Part shown: positions 33,607 to 41,573 of the stretch, one piece after another | Numbering within the stretch: the stretch's first letter is position 1 | Layout: each line of letters begins with the position of its first letter | Source of the DNA: Canna indica | Taxonomy: Eukaryota; Streptophyta; Magnoliopsida; Zingiberales; Cannaceae | Reading direction: 5' to 3' | Assembly (NCBI GenBank): GCA_034359265.1 | Contig: CP136890.1 | Span: 40,336,501 to 40,400,500 of the forward strand | Length of the DNA: 64,000 nt | Program-made: the position numbers and the translations under genes | Notes under the pieces: generated by a model | What the model was told of the DNA's origin: nothing | Seen by the model: the letters and a program-made list of their open reading frames with translations, nothing else | The model's database searches: none

Positions 33607-33609
33607 TGA

Positions 33610-33645
33610 CACTACAAGAGAACAAGGCTTCACCGACGGATGTAT
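33610..33645 (+). repeat. CACTA left terminal inverted repeat
   Basis: Starts CACTACAAGAGAACAAGGCT and continues TTCACCGACGGA. Confidence 0.9.
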
Positions 33646-33894
33646 TACCAACCGATATTTTTTGTTGGTATTACCAACAAAGTCACCAACAGATACATAT
33701 ATCTGTTGGTAAAATTTAGAACACCCTAAATTTTTTTATTCCCTCTTATTTTTTCAGCCGACCAGCTTTTCCCTCTCCCCCAGTCGACAAAAAATCGCGC
33801 CCTTATTTTCTTATCAACCCGACAAAAGCTTGCAGGTGCGCGACAAAAGTTTCCCTCTCCCACTTTGTGTCGTGCGATTCTTCTCTAGCCGCGA

Positions 33895-33978
33895 CGCTTC
33901 TTCCCTGCCACCCGCGATCTCCCCTGCCACCCGCAACGCTTCTTCCCTGCCACCCGCGATCTCCCCTGCCACCCGCAA
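33895..33978 (+). repeat. Perfect 42-bp tandem duplication
   Basis: The unit CGCTTCTTCCCTGCCACCCG... occurs twice in a row in the GC-rich leader ahead of the MADS-box fragment. Confidence 0.9.
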
Positions 33979-34065
33979 CAAGCTCTCGCAGAGGCCTGTC
34001 TGTCGTGCGATTCTTCTCCAGCCGCGGCGATGCTTCTTCATCCTTTGTCTTTTATTGCATCTCGC

Positions 34066-34069
<4 letters not shown>

Positions 34070-34111
<42 letters not shown>
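34070..34111. repeat. (GA)n microsatellite at the broken MADS start
   Basis: About 20 GA units run directly into the third codon of the MADS domain. Confidence 0.95.
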
Positions 34112-34114
<3 letters not shown>

Positions 34115-35371
34115 GGGAAGATTGAGATAAAGAAGATAGAGAACCCGACCAATCGGCAGGTCACTTATTCCAAGAGGCGGTCGGGGATCATGAAGAAGGC
34201 GAGGGAGCTCACGGTGCTTTACGATGCTGAGGTCTCTATCGTCATGTTTTCCAGCACCGGCAAGTTCTCCGATTAGTGCAGCCCCTCCACTGAGTAAGTG
34301 TTGGTTCCTTCCTTCTTCGATCTGCCTTGTTCTCTTTAATTTAGGGTTTCTTAGTGCTTACTGCCGTGGCCAGAACAAAGAAGATTTTTTATCGATATCA
34401 GCAAGCGACCGGAATCAACTTGAGGAGTGCCCAATATGAGGCAAGCACCCGCTTCATCGATCCATCTCTGAACTCCATTTTTTTTTCTGTGCTTAAGTTT
34501 TCGTTTCTGATGTGTGCCTTTGTTTTGTTTTTTTTTCTCATTTTTTTTGGGAATGTGATTGAGTAGAGAATGCAAAACAGTCTGAACCATCTGAAGGAGA
34601 TCAACAGGTGGCCGATGCCTTCTCCTTAATTTATTTGCTTCATTAATTTAAACCTTCTTTTGTCCAAAGGAATCTTAGGTTCTTTTACGAAGAGGTTGTT
34701 TGTTTGGTGCTGTAAATATATAGGCAAAGGATGGGCGAAGATCTGGATGGAATGGACATCAAGGAACTGCATGGTCTTGAGCAAAATTTGGATGGAGCTT
34801 TGAAGGTTGTTCGCAATCGAAAAGTGAGTCAACTCCTTCTTCTTCTTCTTCTTATTCTTCTTCTTGAAAGATATATATTTTACATTACATTTTCGAAGAT
34901 ATTTTGATATATTAGTTTTGGAATAATTAAAACCAGAAGTTTGGAAATTATGATATCATTATTTGCTGGTGAAGTCTTATATACTTGCTTTATATCTCTT
35001 TCTGGAGTTTGGAGCACCTGAGGTTTCATAAGTTGGGAAGAATTAAAATATATCAATATATGGTATTATTTTGCTGTTGTGGTATCTCTTCACCAAGTTA
35101 GGTCTTTGTTCTTCTCCACTTTAGCTATTTAATTTATTTGAGAAAAAAAAAGAAATCAATCATTTCCTCAATAATTTTTTTTCAAAAAAAAAGCATATAT
35201 AAACCTCTCATTTATATTCACGCATGCAGTATAATTTGATCAAATTCCTCTATCTTATTCCAGATCGAAAATAATAGAGAATTAAACTACAGTGTAATAT
35301 ATATTTGCATGATTTCGATTTGGTTGCAGTATCATGTGATCTCTACACAAACAGATACCTACAAGAAGAAG
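34112..35371 (+). pseudogene. AP3/DEF-like B-class MADS-box gene fragment captured by CACTA
   Basis: Five exon-like blocks follow the MIKC gene plan: 34112-34293 (MADS domain from residue 3: [32 protein letters not shown]), 34374-34440 (67 bp, IFYRYQQATGINL), 34567 to about 34607 (RMQNSLNHLKEINR), 34724-34823 (100 bp, RMGEDLDGMDIKEL) and 35330-35371 (42 bp, YHVISTQTDTYKKK). These match the AP3/OsMADS16 type; AP3 proteins specify petal and stamen identity as partners of PI. Introns are kept, so capture was from DNA. Damage: the ATG and codon 2 are replaced by the GA tract, codon 57 is TAG in place of Tyr, the MADS Cys is Tyr (TVLYDAE), exon 2 ends in a GC donor, the end of exon 3 is lost, and everything after the K-box start is absent. 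Confidence 0.9.
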
Positions 35372-36433
35372 GTATGCATGTTGCTTTAGAATTAATGTTG
35401 GATATTGTATGGTTAATTAACTCATGACTCATCAATTATTTATTAAAGCAATTATCAATACATACACCTTGATGGAAATATCTCATTTTACTGTAATTTA
35501 AATTTCCCCACAAACTATATATTTGCAAATTCCACTAGGGTTTTTGTTCTCTAATACGCGTGCCAGCTTGCATAAATTAATTGCGTGGATAAAATAATTC
35601 TCGCTTCAATGTTGAATCCGTTTGATGAATTAAATGACTACACTACAAGTTTAATTCTCTTTTACGTATATATAAAAGTGTTTGAATCTTAATTTAAAAA
35701 GGGATTTAGTGGCTCATTCTTTTCATATTTTGTCTCTCATATTTTTTTACCTACAACACTTCCTTTAATTTTCTTCTTCAGTTTTATTTTTGTTTACCTA
35801 TATTGTATGTATAAAACACTGACGAATGTCTTTTTCAGGAGTAGAAGTTGACCACCGAGGATTTTCTCTTATTATTACCATCTATCTTAAGTATTTGCAT
35901 GCATTTTCATATCTTACTTAATTTCTCAATTAAGTGAGATTTACAACTCATTATATATATATAATCTTGCTTGGTTAACTTCTAGTAATTAATTTGAACC
36001 TAACTACCACAATATGTTTATATAATTCTAATAGTTTTAGCTAGTTTTTGTATCATTCTACTATTTTTTTCAAAAATTTCATTCATATATAAATATCTGT
36101 CAACTGAAGATGATATCATCTATCTGTTATCTATCCATGGTGTTGTATGAATCCTTAACTACATAATTAATGACATTATCTTGGAGGTATATTTTGAATT
36201 GTTCTTTTATATGGTTTAAAAATTAGTAGGATGCAAATGAAAAATTTCTAAATGGCTTGCTTCCTTGGTGTAGTTTTCATCTTCTTTTCATCTTCACCAC
36301 TTTATTCAGTGAATTGAGTAGCTACAGCTTCACTTGACATCATAACATGTGTTTTATGTGTGTTACTCTATCCTGATATACAAGCCATTTATGTTCCTCT
36401 GCATGTATTATACATTTGATAGATTCCTTCTAG

Positions 36434-36755
36434 GTTTGATGTGTGAATTACTTTGGAGTGACCCGCAACCTCAACAAGGAAGAGGCCCCAGTAAGCGGGG
36501 TGTTGGGCTTTCCTTTGGTGAAGACGTAACTAGGAGATTTCTACAAGAAAATAATCTTGGTAACATTGAGTTCTTATCAAGAAAATAGTGAAATGGTTTA
36601 GTTTGATTCTTAAAATGTGAAAATATTGTTGTGCTTAAACTTTATTTTCCGCAGATCTTGTTGTTCGGTCTCATGAAGTTAAGGATGAGGGTTATGAGAT
36701 TGAACATGGTGGAAAGCTTATTACCGTATTTTTTGCTCCAAATTATTGTGATCAG
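36434..36755 (+). pseudogene. PP5-type Ser/Thr phosphatase fragment captured by CACTA (two exons)
   Basis: Exon 36434-36559 encodes [12 protein letters not shown]...[14 protein letters not shown] and FLQENN. A GT-AG intron follows, then exon 36655-36755 encoding [20 protein letters not shown]...[13 protein letters not shown]. These are the late catalytic-domain exons of protein phosphatase 5 (PAPP5 in plants), with the [11 protein letters not shown] and APNYCD motifs. The usual VFSAPNYCD Ser is Phe. The TPR domain, the first catalytic motifs and the exon after CDQ are all missing, so this cannot be an active phosphatase. Confidence 0.88.
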
Positions 36756-36934
36756 GTAATTATGATACTATTTGTCAGTCACATGAAGTTAAGGCAATTA
36801 TGTTGACTAACTATAGTGTAATTAGAAAAAAATCGATGCATTGATTTAGCAAGAGAGAAAAGCCAAAAGCATGATGCTTCCAGGTTGTTGACAAAATAGA
36901 TAGTAGAGGGGTGGTTTTTTGTTTGAATATGCAG

Positions 36935-38610
36935 GTTCGTTTATTGAAAATAAACCATAGCTATCAAAGTGTCAACAAAAACGTCTTGTATGCATGTGAG
37001 CCCTCAAGCCTGCCAAAGTATCCTCCAAGTAAGGAGATGGATGCTAAACTGAGGGATGAGGAAGCAAGAGGAATACAATCATATTCCTAGTGTTTTATTT
37101 TTTAGGGATATTTATTTTATAATTTTTTAATTACATTCTTGTTGTTTAAGAATATATAATAGGATCTAGTTTTTGACAATGCTACAGAAAATAGTTTGAT
37201 TTTAAAGAGTTCCATGTACTCCTATAATAGCTTTTGAACTGTATATTTATCCTGAGATAATTTCATGTTGTTAATGTTTAGTTTCTAGCTCATTAATCCT
37301 ATAATACTATAATCATGTGATCGATATCCATGGCAAGATTTTTAAGTACCCAATACATATTATGATTTCTTGTGTTACTATAAATTTGAATGGTTTAGTT
37401 ATCAAGTCTGTACTGCATCAGATTTCTAATTTCTATTTCATTATATATCCTTTGTGTAATCATATTATAGATTGCCATTTAGAGTCTTCTCCAAGAACCA
37501 ATGAGATGTGAATAATGAACTTGGAGATCTTTTACCATCCAAGTATGACCTGAAGGGAAAATACCATCTCCTTTCACTAATAATGAACTTGGAGATCTGT
37601 CCGGAATATGGAGTTCACATGATTACATGGCTCACGTAGACTGAGTGAGATTTGGAATTATTTGTTGTTCAGATTCATAAACTCGATTGATCCCTCCCTC
37701 CTTGTGGATATCTCAACTTTTGCCCCTTGCATCTCCCTTTCTGCCACAGCCTAAAAATAGATAAAATACAATGAGAAGTTAGCATTTTTTTTCATCATTC
37801 TTATCATGCCTTTTTTAAAATTGTTTACTACATAATGGAAGAATTCTATATTTTCCACATCAGTGTTAACCTAAAGGCTCTATGGAGCCACATAACTCAA
37901 CTTAGTTGTTCCAACACCTTTTTTCAACATTCTATTCTGGCTTAGACTTGGATGTGCTTAAGGATGATCTTTGACCAGTACTATTTCTAGCTCTTGGGAG
38001 AAAGACATGCTCTAACATGATTCTATAATAGGTCTAGGGTAAACAAATGAGAATCTTGATCCAAAACCATCGACATAGGTCTCCAGTCAGCTACTAAGTT
38101 GGTGGAGACAAATCTGTTTGAGTGAAGTCCTGGCTTGGTTCCTCACGGGTGTAGTTGCACATGTCTACAACCATGTGGCTCTCAAAAAAGTTTCAAAAAT
38201 TGAAACATTGAACTTGTTAATGTACACTGGCAAGTTGCAGCATCTATGCCATAAATTTCCACAGTCGCAACTCTCTTACTCAAAGGTTTATATGTTTTGT
38301 TGAATTTTCCATTCTCGTATTGAATAATTTGAACAATTAGAGTTGCAAGAATAGTATGCTAAAATTCACTTGACATATTGCTTTGAACCTTGAAAATTCA
38401 GCTTTACATAATACTGCAATGCAAGTATATTAACTTAGCAAGATTCTTTTATCCACGAGATATATTTTCAGATACTATTATTGTATAAAATTTACATCAA
38501 GAAGATGATTTTATCATATCTTTTTAACATTAGCCGCTGAAAAGAAACGTCGGGCTGAGGAGGCACAACAATCTGGATCTGGTGCAAATGCTCAAAATAA
38601 TGGAGTATCT
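36935..38610 (+). pseudogene. Unidentified captured gene fragment (two exon-like blocks)
   Basis: After a GCAG acceptor at 36934, a frame of about 50 codons reads ...INHSYQSVNKNVLYACEPSS, then LPKYPPSKEMDAKLRDEEAR, and stops at about 37090. A second block, 38534-38610, between TAG acceptor and GTAAG donor, reads AAEKKRRAEEAQQSGSGANA and QNNGVS. The charged DEEAR/AAEKKRR ends look as if they join, so both probably come from one host gene with a 1.4-kb intron. I do not recognise the family. The first block lies where the next PP5 exon would be but is not PP5. Confidence 0.5.
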
Positions 38611-38619
38611 GTAAGTTTA

Positions 38620-40100
38620 TTGATCTTTCTCTAAGTTTAATTTCATTTCTGTTGGTCAATTGTTTGCTAATTAACATGCCTTTAAGTTTTCAAGCTACAT
38701 CTACTCTTTGGGCAATATAGATTATAGAGCATATAACAGGTAGAATGTTACCTTACTGGTCCAATGTTCATTTACTAAGTTTCCTCTATGATTTCATTCA
38801 TTTTAACTCGTAATGCGATGTTTGTCATGGTTATCAAACTATGCCAGAACAAATTCTTCATTGTTTTTTTAGTTGGGCTATTAGCTTAATTTTTTATTTT
38901 CATTTTTTAAGTACAGTGAGGATCGCAATAGATATCATAGAAAGTTCTGTTAGTAGGAGTAACATGTATGAGCAAAATTTCTGATCTTGTTATGAGTCTT
39001 ATGACCTACTTAGGCTATATTGTAATCCCAACATATGAGCTGTGCTGGTTGGCTCTACCTCTGTTACTATGGAGATGCTCTTGGCACTGAACTGCACTTT
39101 ATGCAATTACTTTGTTGACACATAATGTGCCAACAGCCCAGTTTATACTGTTGGTACTAACTCATGCTCTATTCTGAAGATAAATATCAGTACCTTCTTT
39201 TTGGGTCATCATTCTGGCATGCTTATCATCGCTATGGAACAATAGGTCATCTTCACGCAACCCTTCTGGTTGTACTCTTATATATAAATTTTCAAACTTC
39301 AAAATTTGGCCTTGATTTTTGTTTGTCTTCAAAAGATCTCTAATTCAGATGCTATAAATATGCTCCTGAGTGATACTTGTCTAAACCAAGTTACTAAGCT
39401 TTTAGATTCTTTTAGGAGCATTTGTTCTGAGTCTTTAGATAACATGAACTATGCTTAACTCTACTTTTCTTTAGAATATATTCTGGTTGAAGGAAATTGA
39501 AGAATGAAATTATATCTTTACTATCAAGTATCTTAAATATTGAACAATACTTGTGATGAGTAAATACTAAAATATAGAGCTTCATTTGTTAGGCATATTG
39601 ATAGTTCAGTTTGATCTTCTTGTGTAAATTTCTATCATATCATATATTTTACTGTAAATAAAGTTTCATCAGTGAGCTTTGATTAGAAACAATGCTTGTT
39701 ATCTAGAATTCTAAGCAGTGGTCAATACTCCAAGTCTCCAACAGTGAGAAACTGGGAATTATATCTAGGTTATAAATTGAACGGGTGAGGTTGTAATCAG
39801 TGGCTGTTATGACCATGGATTTGGTGTATACTTCTTTGACGGTGTTTTCATCTGATAATCCAGATAGAACTAACATACGTTCAACCAGTAAGAAATCAAG
39901 ATGATTAGTTTGTATGCAAAAATAAATACAAAAATGAAATCCCAAAAGATATCTCTGCCAGATGGCATACTAATAAAGACTTGTCATTTCTTCAGAACTC
40001 ACGAATCTACATTTACAAGCTGGATAAAGTTGATGTGAAGCTACTCTACATGATGCCTTCCTCTGTTTGGGTGTCATGCTTCATAGATGGCTGATTGTTT
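38620..40100. other. CACTA interior, no coding signal recognised
   Basis: AT-rich, intron-like sequence. It may be further captured intronic DNA. No transposase motif was found in either strand. Confidence 0.4.
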
Positions 40101-40111
40101 GGTATATTAAC

Positions 40112-40531
40112 TGGGGGTGTAACCAAGCCAAGCCGAGCTTGCATGTGCTTGAGCTCGGCTCGTTTAAGAAATGTTGAGCTTGAGCACGAGCTCGAGCTTG
40201 ATCGAGCTTTGATCTCTAGGCTCGAGTTATATTCGAGCAACTCGAGCTCGGCTCATTTAGGCTTGTTTATTTTTCTCGAGCTTGACCAAGCTCGATTAAG
40301 TTCGGCTCGACTCGGGTTTGTGGGTTCTAAAAGCCCGACTCGACATATCAATATTTATATAATTATATATAAATATATGAAGCTGGATTAGGCTCGCAAG
40401 CGGCTCGAGCCGAGTATTGGTTAGCTCAAGCTTAGCTCGCTTATATGTAAAGCTCGACTCGAGCTCAATAAGATCGGAGTCAAGTTTGAGTTTTCATCAA
40501 GTTGATCTCGAGTAGCTCACTTGCACCCCTA
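40112..40531. mobile_element. hAT-type MITE, 420 bp, nested in CACTA, TSD ATATTAAC
   Basis: The termini TGGGGGTGTAAC and, reversed, TAGGGGTGCAAG are flanked by the perfect 8-bp duplication ATATTAAC (40104-40111 and 40532-40539). The body is full of GAGCTCGAGC-type palindromes. It inserted after the CACTA element was assembled, or came in with captured DNA. Confidence 0.92.
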
Positions 40532-41259
40532 ATATTAACTAGAAGAAATATGCATCTTAGTCATATCCTTGATTGATTTATACTCCTTTGACAAACTTGG
40601 AAACGGCCCCCCCACATCCCCAGTGTTTTCTGTTTTGTTTGTTTGATATTTTCCAGTTGGCAACCATCAAATTGAAAACTGCATTCTTTCATCTTAATGC
40701 CACAAGCTCAAAAGAGATTCTCCAAGCATGCACTATGTTTTATGTTTGATAATTAGGGAAAGTCACGTAGATAATCTGTCAGCTCTGCTAACAACTTACA
40801 TAACCTTCTAGGCTTCTGGGATAAGAATTTAATAGGTAAATCCCGACATTTCAATCAGAAGAACAAAGACATGACATTATTGCTGTATTCTTCATGTTTA
40901 TTGCTGCTTGTACTTTTCTTTTGTTTTTACATGCAGGTATAAAATTTTCTTTTGTTTTTGCATGCAGGTATAAAAAGGATGAAATGCAAGGATCTACTTT
41001 TTGAAAAAGACTCTCATTGATATGTATTTTTGAAATAATCTTAATGTATTTGAAACTCCGAAACAATGTATTTGCTTGACTAGCACAATCTTAATGTATA
41101 CAATGGTTTCCTTAAGTTATTTATGGTTGTGTGAATTTCTGTGTGTGAATTTAGAAATATAATGGTTCATATGTGGTTTCAAATTTTATTTTATGGTTTT
41201 GTGTAAATGTGATATGTTTTAGGTGTTCAGGATTGATTTAGGTATTAGCCAATAAAATA

Positions 41260-41523
41260 TATTACCGACGAATATATTTTGTTGGTATTACCAACATAAA
41301 TATATCTGTTGGTATTACCAACGGAATAATTACCAACGAAAATACTTCCGTTGGTATTACCAACGGAAAAACATGTGTTGGTAATACCAACAAACGAAAA
41401 AATTTGTTGGTAATACCGACGGATTTTAGCAACGGAGCGTCTGTCGGTAATAGTATTACCGACGGATTTTGGAGTATCACCGACGAATTTCGTCCGTTGG
41501 TGAAACCCTATTTTCTTGTAGTG
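41260..41523 (+). repeat. CACTA right subterminal repeats and terminal inverted repeat
   Basis: There are at least six copies of TTGGTATTACCAACGG-like words in both orientations, then ATTTTCTTGTAGTG at the end. These words match the left subterminal region (33630-33715) and are the expected transposase-binding repeats. Confidence 0.85.
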
Positions 41524-41573
41524 TGAGTATACTGCGTTGAATGGATTAACATACTGGAGATGTGTGAATAATA

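What the first reader, a model, noticed from the sequence alone, without database searches (positions are those of the whole stretch)
33610..41523. Pack-CACTA: a CACTA transposon carrying pieces of at least two, probably three, host genes
Both termini start CACTACAAGA, agree over about 31 bp, and are flanked by the 3-bp duplication TGA. The subterminal repeats match at the two ends. Inside, all in one orientation, are an AP3-like MADS-box piece, a PP5 phosphatase piece and an unidentified exon pair, with no transposase seen. Gene-carrying CACTA elements are known in soybean, sorghum and wheat. A B-class floral gene next to a phosphatase in one element is, as far as I know, not a standard example.
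Basis: partly seen in the sequence, partly recalled or inferred. Interest (0 to 1): 0.88.

Follow-up and report, generated by a model that had tools for sequence, protein, structure and literature searches.

The report
Jumping gene carrying floral-gene pieces
In a genome that is very likely Canna indica, a cut-and-paste transposon of the CACTA type carries broken pieces of a flower-identity gene (APETALA3), a phosphatase gene and a protein-kinase gene, and copies of it sit at several places in the genome; it is a clear but otherwise ordinary case of a known kind, likely moved by a transposase made elsewhere.

Summary
Window 33610-41523 is a 7,914-bp CACTA element: both ends begin CACTACAAGA, 26 of 31 terminal bases agree, TGA is duplicated, and no transposase was found. 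Five further insertion sites of the family each carry their own 3-bp duplication.

The cargo is host genomic DNA. Three pieces are identified: APETALA3 exons 1-5, two PP5 phosphatase exons, and one exon of a CDK12/13-like kinase. Two further exon-like stretches match only other copies. A sister subfamily also carries an isochorismatase piece.

The AP3 source was located: a gene on contig 8 with intact exons 1-5 and a placed last exon. The element matches it colinearly from its 5' leader into intron 5. Seven copies form nearly a star, read as one capture followed by a burst (two captures close in time are not excluded). Between copies exons diverge more than introns, and 6 of 7 carry stops: no sign that the cargo is kept as protein.

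The left end also occurs on elements with other genes (an FtsH-like piece). Fourteen copies on contig 2 look, where tested, like segmental duplicates of one insertion. Verdict: Pack-CACTA, new member of a known kind.

The parts
33607..33609 (.). target-site duplication TGA, left copy
   Evidence: sequence
33610..33640 (+). left terminal inverted repeat (CACTACAAGAGAACAAGGCTTCACCGACGGA)
   Evidence: 26 of 31 agree with the right end; the end occurs at 164 places in the genome within 2 mismatches, 0 for the reversed control
33610..34045 (+). left terminal module shared with loci that do not carry this cargo
   Evidence: 85.8-87.9% over 436 bp with L004-L008; L006 carries an FtsH-like AAA piece
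34042..36185 (+). captured AP3 genomic segment (5' leader to intron 5); overlaps the left module by 4 bp (34042-34045)
   Evidence: colinear with C8:71956199-71958409 (L013 1415-3625), 91.8 and 94.5% by BLAST
34106..34293 (+). AP3 exon 1 (MADS box); start codon lost beside a (GA)n run, TAG stop at 34274-34276
   Evidence: Pfam SRF-TF
34374..34440 (+). AP3 exon 2
34567..34607 (+). AP3 exon 3, with 21 bp of the donor exon deleted
   Evidence: 21 exon bases deleted in the window copy
34724..34823 (+). AP3 exon 4 (K-box)
35330..35371 (+). AP3 exon 5
36442..36558 (+). PP5 phosphatase exon a
36654..36755 (+). PP5 phosphatase exon b
36989..37069 (+). CDK-like kinase exon, 91% to C4:3024614-3024694
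   Evidence: the relative's locus matches CDK12/13
38536..38610 (+). unidentified exon-like stretch, open in 4 of 4 copies in which it was found
   Evidence: only family copies found by the protein search of the genome
39996..40091 (+). unidentified exon-like stretch followed by TGA
   Evidence: only family copies found by the protein search of the genome
40114..40519 (.). dispersed repeat, also beside the contig-1 AP3 gene and elsewhere
40914..40975 (+). 31-bp tandem duplication at the cargo / right-module junction
   Evidence: (D9)
40946..41523 (+). right terminal module with subterminal repeats, shared with loci that lack this cargo in the flank held
   Evidence: L047, L048, L051
41493..41523 (-). 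right terminal inverted repeat
41524..41526 (.). target-site duplication TGA, right copy
   Evidence: sequence

Best explanation
The element is a CACTA transposon in which no transposase was found and which carries genomic pieces of an APETALA3, a PP5 and a CDK-like kinase gene between family-wide CACTA ends, likely moved in trans by transposase from other CACTA elements. Shown: ends, 3-bp duplications at six sites, intron-containing AP3 and PP5 cargo, a matching AP3 gene elsewhere in the genome, and no sign of protein constraint on the AP3 copies. Inferred: that this gene is the donor; that there was one AP3 capture followed by a burst; that the mobiliser is a CACTA transposase (the genome holds thousands of candidates); that capture ran at DNA level, either by two nearby elements mobilised as one unit or by gap repair; that ends were exchanged around the same cargo in one subfamily. 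Most likely effect on the host: none beyond insertion. Transcription, splicing and small RNAs are untested.
For: Ends and duplication. Six sites with duplications TGA, ATG, AGT, ATT, ATA, AAA. No transposase found. AP3 gene: C8:71956271 encodes MGRGKIEIKK... with exons 1-5 free of stops, last exon at C8:71961181-71961282 (E 8.6e-6) and probably exon 6 at 71960929-71960973 (E 5.8, weak). Near-star: of 1,811 columns with letters in all 8 rows, 56 set all 7 copies apart from the donor, 160 are private to one copy, 39 are shared by 2-6 copies, 19 are multi-state; only 3 columns separate the five window-type copies from the two sister copies. No constraint: copy-to-copy exon divergence 5.5%, intron 3.9% over 21 pairs; 6 of 7 copies have stops in exons 1-5. 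Transposase candidates: 9,638 in the genome, of which 150 were scored and listed, all over the cut-off. Same left end with another gene.
Against: No autonomous partner with these ends was identified: 12 transposase loci with 1.5 kb of flank showed neither end. The 56 fixed differences do not prove one capture: of the 3 that lie in exons, 2 are changes on the donor's own branch by comparison with two other AP3 genes, 1 is unresolved and 0 is clearly a change of the copies; left and right limits of the AP3 piece differ between the two subfamilies, so two captures close in time are possible. A CACTACAAGAAAA-type terminus lies 0.8 kb upstream of the contig-8 AP3 gene and a CACTACAAGG one in its intron 5; both would close elements lying to their left and no facing left end was seen in the 4.3 kb held, but the locus was not read further. 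The junction of AP3 with PP5 differs from that in the sister subfamily and is unresolved. A simple dN/dS between copies is 0.49, which alone would hint at constraint. The PP5 relative (C7:60995160) is only about 79% alike. Movement was not observed.
Confidence: 0.93

Rival explanations
1. The fused AP3-PP5-kinase cargo is a working chimeric gene kept by selection, with the ends incidental.
For: In the window copy the splice sites of AP3 exons 1-5 read like those of the donor (by eye); one copy of seven (C1:51447002-51454512) has no stop in exons 1-5; pooled copy-to-copy dN/dS 0.49.
Against: Exons diverge more than introns between copies (5.5 v 3.9%); 6 of 7 have stops; the window copy has lost the start codon and 21 exon bases; no AP3 exons 6-7 were found in the element.
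Confidence: 0.03
2. The element is a source of small RNAs that act on the intact AP3 gene.
For: Perfect 21-mers from 7 copies cover 426 of 459 bases of donor exons 1-5, while the two other AP3 loci share only 5 and 10 21-mers with the copies over 5.0 and 4.0 kb.
Against: No expression data were available. Any young duplicate would give the same coverage. An inverted pair of AP3 pieces, which would give a hairpin, was not searched for beyond the window element.
Confidence: 0.05
3. The copies were spread by ordinary segmental duplication of a gene cluster, not by transposition.
For: 14 places on C2 (59.95-60.71 Mb) hold the AP3 piece; flanks beyond the element ends match at 97.4-97.8% in three of the comparisons made.
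Against: The dispersed copies on C1, C4, C8 and C9 have different flanking letters and different 3-bp duplications; the C2 copy read in full is itself a CACTA insertion (duplication ATA).
Confidence: 0.02

Closest known systems
Pack-CACTA elements (Arabidopsis, rice, maize; PMC8903248, passages seen)
   Same: CACTA ends, 3-bp duplication, host coding DNA inside, no transposase, cargo from more than one locus (reported as frequent in maize, most of all in Pack-CACTA)
   Different: Cargo here is AP3 + PP5 + kinase, in a Zingiberales genome; a matching AP3 gene, two kinds of left end and a segmental array are described
Tgm-Express1 of soybean (PMC1947982, passages seen)
   Same: CACTA ends around exon-intron pieces of five genes, one of them a CDC2 kinase
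   Different: Sits in a pigment gene with a visible phenotype and spliced chimeric transcripts; no such data exist here for the Canna element
Chenopodium CACTA-like elements with captured AP2 fragments (PMC8978399, abstract and passages seen)
   Same: CACTA carrying a piece of a floral-development gene
   Different: 80-bp AP2 fragments lying upstream of the element's own coding part; here 2.1 kb of AP3 in an element in which no transposase was found

Membership tests
CACTA (En/Spm) superfamily | terminal inverted repeats beginning CACTA | tested here: met
CACTA (En/Spm) superfamily | 3-bp target-site duplication | tested here: met
   six insertion sites, six different triplets
CACTA (En/Spm) superfamily | subterminal direct and inverted repeats at both ends | tested here: met
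CACTA (En/Spm) superfamily | autonomous partner with the same ends and a TnpD-type transposase | tested here: inconclusive
   Transposase_21 is abundant in the genome, but none of 12 loci with 1.5 kb of flank showed these ends
Pack-CACTA | no transposase in the element | tested here: met
   10 of 20 frames; 12 transposase frames, no hit
Pack-CACTA | fragment of a host gene with a separate genomic relative | tested here: met
   AP3 gene at C8:71956271; PP5 relative L055 and kinase relative L073
Pack-CACTA | several copies with the same ends at unrelated sites | tested here: met
Pack-CACTA | mobility | not testable with these tools
   needs populations or hypomethylated plants
AP3/DEF lineage of MADS-box genes (captured piece) | closest named proteins are AP3/DEF-type and the matching gene has an AP3-type tail | tested here: met
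   in the 120 of 1,013 rows listed the informative names are mostly AP3, DEF or MADS16-like, with a few TM6 and SPW1; others are numbered or unspecific. The tail of a turmeric AP3 protein finds the end of the contig-8 gene. The tree has 3 starred forks of 18; a second Zingiberales AP3 group (90/96) leaves the captured piece out

The most novel reading that the evidence does not exclude
A burst of CACTA elements has spread near-identical pieces of one particular Canna APETALA3 gene over the genome, and these copies feed small RNAs that tune that one AP3 gene (not the other two), in a plant famous for petal-like stamens.
Probability: 0.04. Interest if true: 0.8.

Novelty: new member of a known kind. 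Interest (0 to 1): 0.36.

Why it matters
It gives a nearly complete case of gene capture by a CACTA transposon: a matching gene in the same genome, a left junction at base level, a burst of copies, a later segmental array, and the same left end on elements with other genes. That makes the capture mechanism testable at base level in a non-model monocot. The captured gene is a B-class floral gene in a genus whose flowers have petaloid stamens, so the question whether the copies affect the intact gene can be asked directly with small-RNA data.

Tried and rejected
Lost-donor idea: the two AP3 genes first found (C1:96919817, C9:6577260) fall in a different Zingiberales AP3 group, and for a while the captured piece looked like the fossil of a lost gene. 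Rejected: a gene of the right kind is at C8:71956271-71961282.

Proof of a single capture: I first took the 56 fixed differences as proof. The check shows that they may be changes of the donor itself, so one capture is now given as the simplest reading only.

Protein constraint: looked for, not found, with the dN/dS of 0.49 told as a result the other way. Empty site inside the genome: none among the 40 of 508 candidates scored; the left flank holds a dispersed repeat, so its partial hits mean nothing. Donor of the stretch 37320-40110: none recognised among 26 of 26 candidates; several small matching places there were not read. The protein search with the two exon-like stretches scored 12 of 12 candidates and gave 10 matches at 5 loci, all family copies.

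Kinase relative: Pfam gave nothing for the piece; the solved-structure search named it. The coiled-coil frame in L005 had no Pfam match; I recall it as WEB-like, from no call. Literature: no AP3 or other B-class piece in a CACTA was seen in the listings (titles and starts of abstracts only); Catoni 2019 is not held and is known here only through the passages.
Full report
WHAT WAS CHECKED. The window lies at 40,336,501-40,400,500 of contig 1 in a 752.9-Mb plant genome of 9 contigs. Protein P0035, 'MADS-box transcription factor 16-like [Canna indica]', comes from a contig of 103,567,332 bases, exactly the length of contig 1, and locus L053 on contig 1 encodes it (its last 57 residues at 100%; upstream identical apart from introns and exon borders). 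I therefore take the genome to be Canna indica. A chromosome-level assembly of this species with nine chromosomes is published (PMC9371203, passages seen; the words CACTA and MADS do not occur in its main text; its k-mer estimate of 836.88 Mb is larger than the sequence held here).

THE ELEMENT. CACTACAAGA occurs twice in 64 kb, once at each end. The terminal repeats agree at 26 of 31 positions and TGA is duplicated. Subterminal repeats of the ACCAAC/GTTGGT type stand at both ends. No transposase was found: Pfam on 10 of the 20 frames of at least 70 aa gave only the MADS domain, and 12 transposase frames of this genome gave no hit in the element or the window.

COPIES. Four complete copies have ends at 40370110/40378023 (C1, this window), 59264315/59272344 (C4), 25510185/25521308 (C8) and 46735371/46743337 (C9), with duplications TGA, ATG, AGT and ATT. 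Two further ones belong to a sister subfamily: C2:60520677-60526835 (ATA) and C1:51447002-51454512 (AAA). Another, C1:37349151-37364816, has matches to both ends but its middle and right end were not read. With 40 of 70 candidates scored, the AP3 stretch matched 21 places with a piece of at least 350 bp at 86% or more, counting window and donor; 14 of the 21 are on C2 between 59.95 and 60.71 Mb. Beyond the ends of the C2 copy read in full, the left flank matches 2 of 3 loci compared (97.8 and 97.4% over 735 and 808 bp; L016 gave nothing) and the right flank matches L014 (97.6% over 1,120 bp); L027 gave 93% over 380 bp at a place that does not fit a complete copy, and L023, L025, L026 and L028, which by their coordinates end before the expected flank, gave nothing. 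So the C2 set is, as far as tested, one insertion multiplied by segmental duplication. The left end as such occurs at 164 places within two mismatches, none for the reversed control.

THE CARGO. (a) AP3: the translated exons match SRF-TF and K-box, and the best proteins are MADS16-like (AP3-type) proteins of ginger (86%), banana and turmeric (85% each). (b) PP5: two exons, 138.9 bits to a solved PP5. (c) Kinase: an 81-bp exon, 91% to C4:3024614-3024694; that exon joined with a frame of the same locus matches CDK12/13, while Pfam gave nothing. (d) Two exon-like stretches at 38536-38610 and 39996-40091 for which the protein search found only family copies. (e) In the sister subfamily only, about 700 bp between AP3 and PP5 hold an isochorismatase-domain piece (Pfam 3.6e-10 and a solved isochorismatase-family protein 4.5e-11); the peptide used mixes two copies, each of which has a stop. 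AP3 and PP5 keep introns, so the capture was of genomic DNA, not of a processed transcript.

THE AP3 SOURCE. C8:71956271 starts with an intact ATG and gives exons 1-5 without stops. A search with the turmeric AP3 tail places the last exon at C8:71961181-71961282 (E 8.6e-6) and, weakly, exon 6 at 71960929-71960973 (E 5.8). No PP5 piece was listed near it (40 of 44 candidates scored). In the 4.3 kb held there is no CACTAC facing the gene from the left; two termini of the opposite direction are there, 0.8 kb upstream of the ATG and in intron 5. The element matches this gene in order from the 5' leader (window 34042) to intron 5 (window 36185). The left terminal module that other loci share ends at window 34045, so the junction overlaps by 4 bp. 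The two other AP3 genes of the genome fall in another Zingiberales AP3 group (support 90/96) that leaves the captured piece out; 12 of 18 forks of that tree are open.

CAPTURE AND BURST. I aligned 7 copies (one of them standing for the 14 on C2) with the donor. Of 1,811 columns with letters in all rows, 56 separate all copies from the donor, 160 are private to one copy, 39 are shared by 2-6 copies, 19 are multi-state. That is close to a star. The 56 do not by themselves show one capture: of the 3 in exons, 2 are changes of the donor and 1 is unresolved. But only 3 columns separate the five window-type copies from the two sister copies, although the AP3 piece of the sister type starts 159 bp further upstream (donor 1256 instead of 1415) and ends about 60-70 bp earlier, behind a left end only 77-80% like that of the window type. 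The simplest reading is one capture, with ends exchanged around the cargo soon after; two captures close in time remain possible. End exchange fits the published model in which two neighbouring elements move as one (PMC8903248 and PMC13317346, passages seen); gap repair is not excluded.

IS THE CARGO USED? Between copies the exons differ by 5.5% and the introns by 3.9% (21 pairs). Against the donor the exons differ less than the introns (3.3-4.4% v 6.2-7.4%), as expected if only the donor is constrained. Stops occur in 6 of 7 copies; four of them, among them the window copy, share one at the same tyrosine codon, and two others share one at a glutamine codon. Results against this: a simple pooled dN/dS between copies is 0.49, and one copy has no stop in exons 1-5. 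I give these less weight because the count ignores the excess of transitions and the copies are few. Perfect 21-mers of the 7 copies cover 426 of 459 bases of donor exons 1-5, so small RNAs from the copies, if made, would match the donor; nothing shows that they are made.

SAME LEFT END, OTHER GENES. Of five further loci that share the left 436 bp (L004-L008), L006 carries an FtsH-like AAA piece (Pfam AAA 2.1e-16; FtsH is my reading) and L007 is 94% identical to L006 over 1.9 kb; L005 holds a 260-aa open coiled-coil frame without a Pfam match. For L004 and L008 I identified no cargo. So at least part of this CACTA lineage carries host genes.

PLACE IN WHAT IS KNOWN. Pack-CACTA elements with cargo from several loci are known, notably in maize; soybean Tgm-Express1 carries pieces of five genes, a CDC2 kinase among them; a floral AP2 fragment in a CACTA is reported for Chenopodium. 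The Canna element meets the Pack-CACTA features that I could test; the autonomous partner was inconclusive and mobility not testable. New are the combination, the host, the located B-class gene and the reconstructed history. It is a new member of a known kind.

Noticed in passing
L006 (C2:55280612-55284022) and L007 (C9:14698388-14701797): Loci with the same left end: L006 carries an FtsH-like AAA piece, antisense to the left end; the two are 94% identical over 1.9 kb.
   Followed up: partly
L005 (C5:36654943-36658360): A locus with the same left end holds a 260-aa open frame of coiled-coil type without a Pfam match (recalled as WEB-like, from no call).
   Followed up: partly
C2:60520677-60526835 and C1:51447002-51454512: Sister subfamily with an isochorismatase-domain piece between AP3 and PP5 and a different left end.
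   Followed up: partly
C2:59.95-60.71 Mb: 14 places with the AP3 piece, all on the minus strand: a large, young segmental array (about 97.5% in the flanks that could be compared).
   Followed up: partly
   Followed up: no
L056 (C6:67141000-67144000): A decayed AP3 piece (80.7% over 523 columns, exon 1 to exon 3 region) outside the family's high-identity set.
   Followed up: no
L074 (C6:41277000-41279000) and L075 (C8:72435000-72436800): Two loci 93% identical to each other over 1.5 kb carry another PP5 piece about 85% like that in the element, with a stop in L074.
   Followed up: no
C1:37353370-37361491: An insert of about 8.1 kb splits one copy of the element, with a 3-bp overlap in the matched query coordinates; possibly a nested CACTA.
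   Followed up: no
window 35909-35918, 37099-37100, 37505-37508, 37854-37855: The window copy lacks about 45, 41, 71 and 64 bp at four points where the C4, C8 and C9 copies have extra sequence, each at a short direct repeat (computed from the coordinates): small deletions, apparently private to this copy.
   Followed up: no
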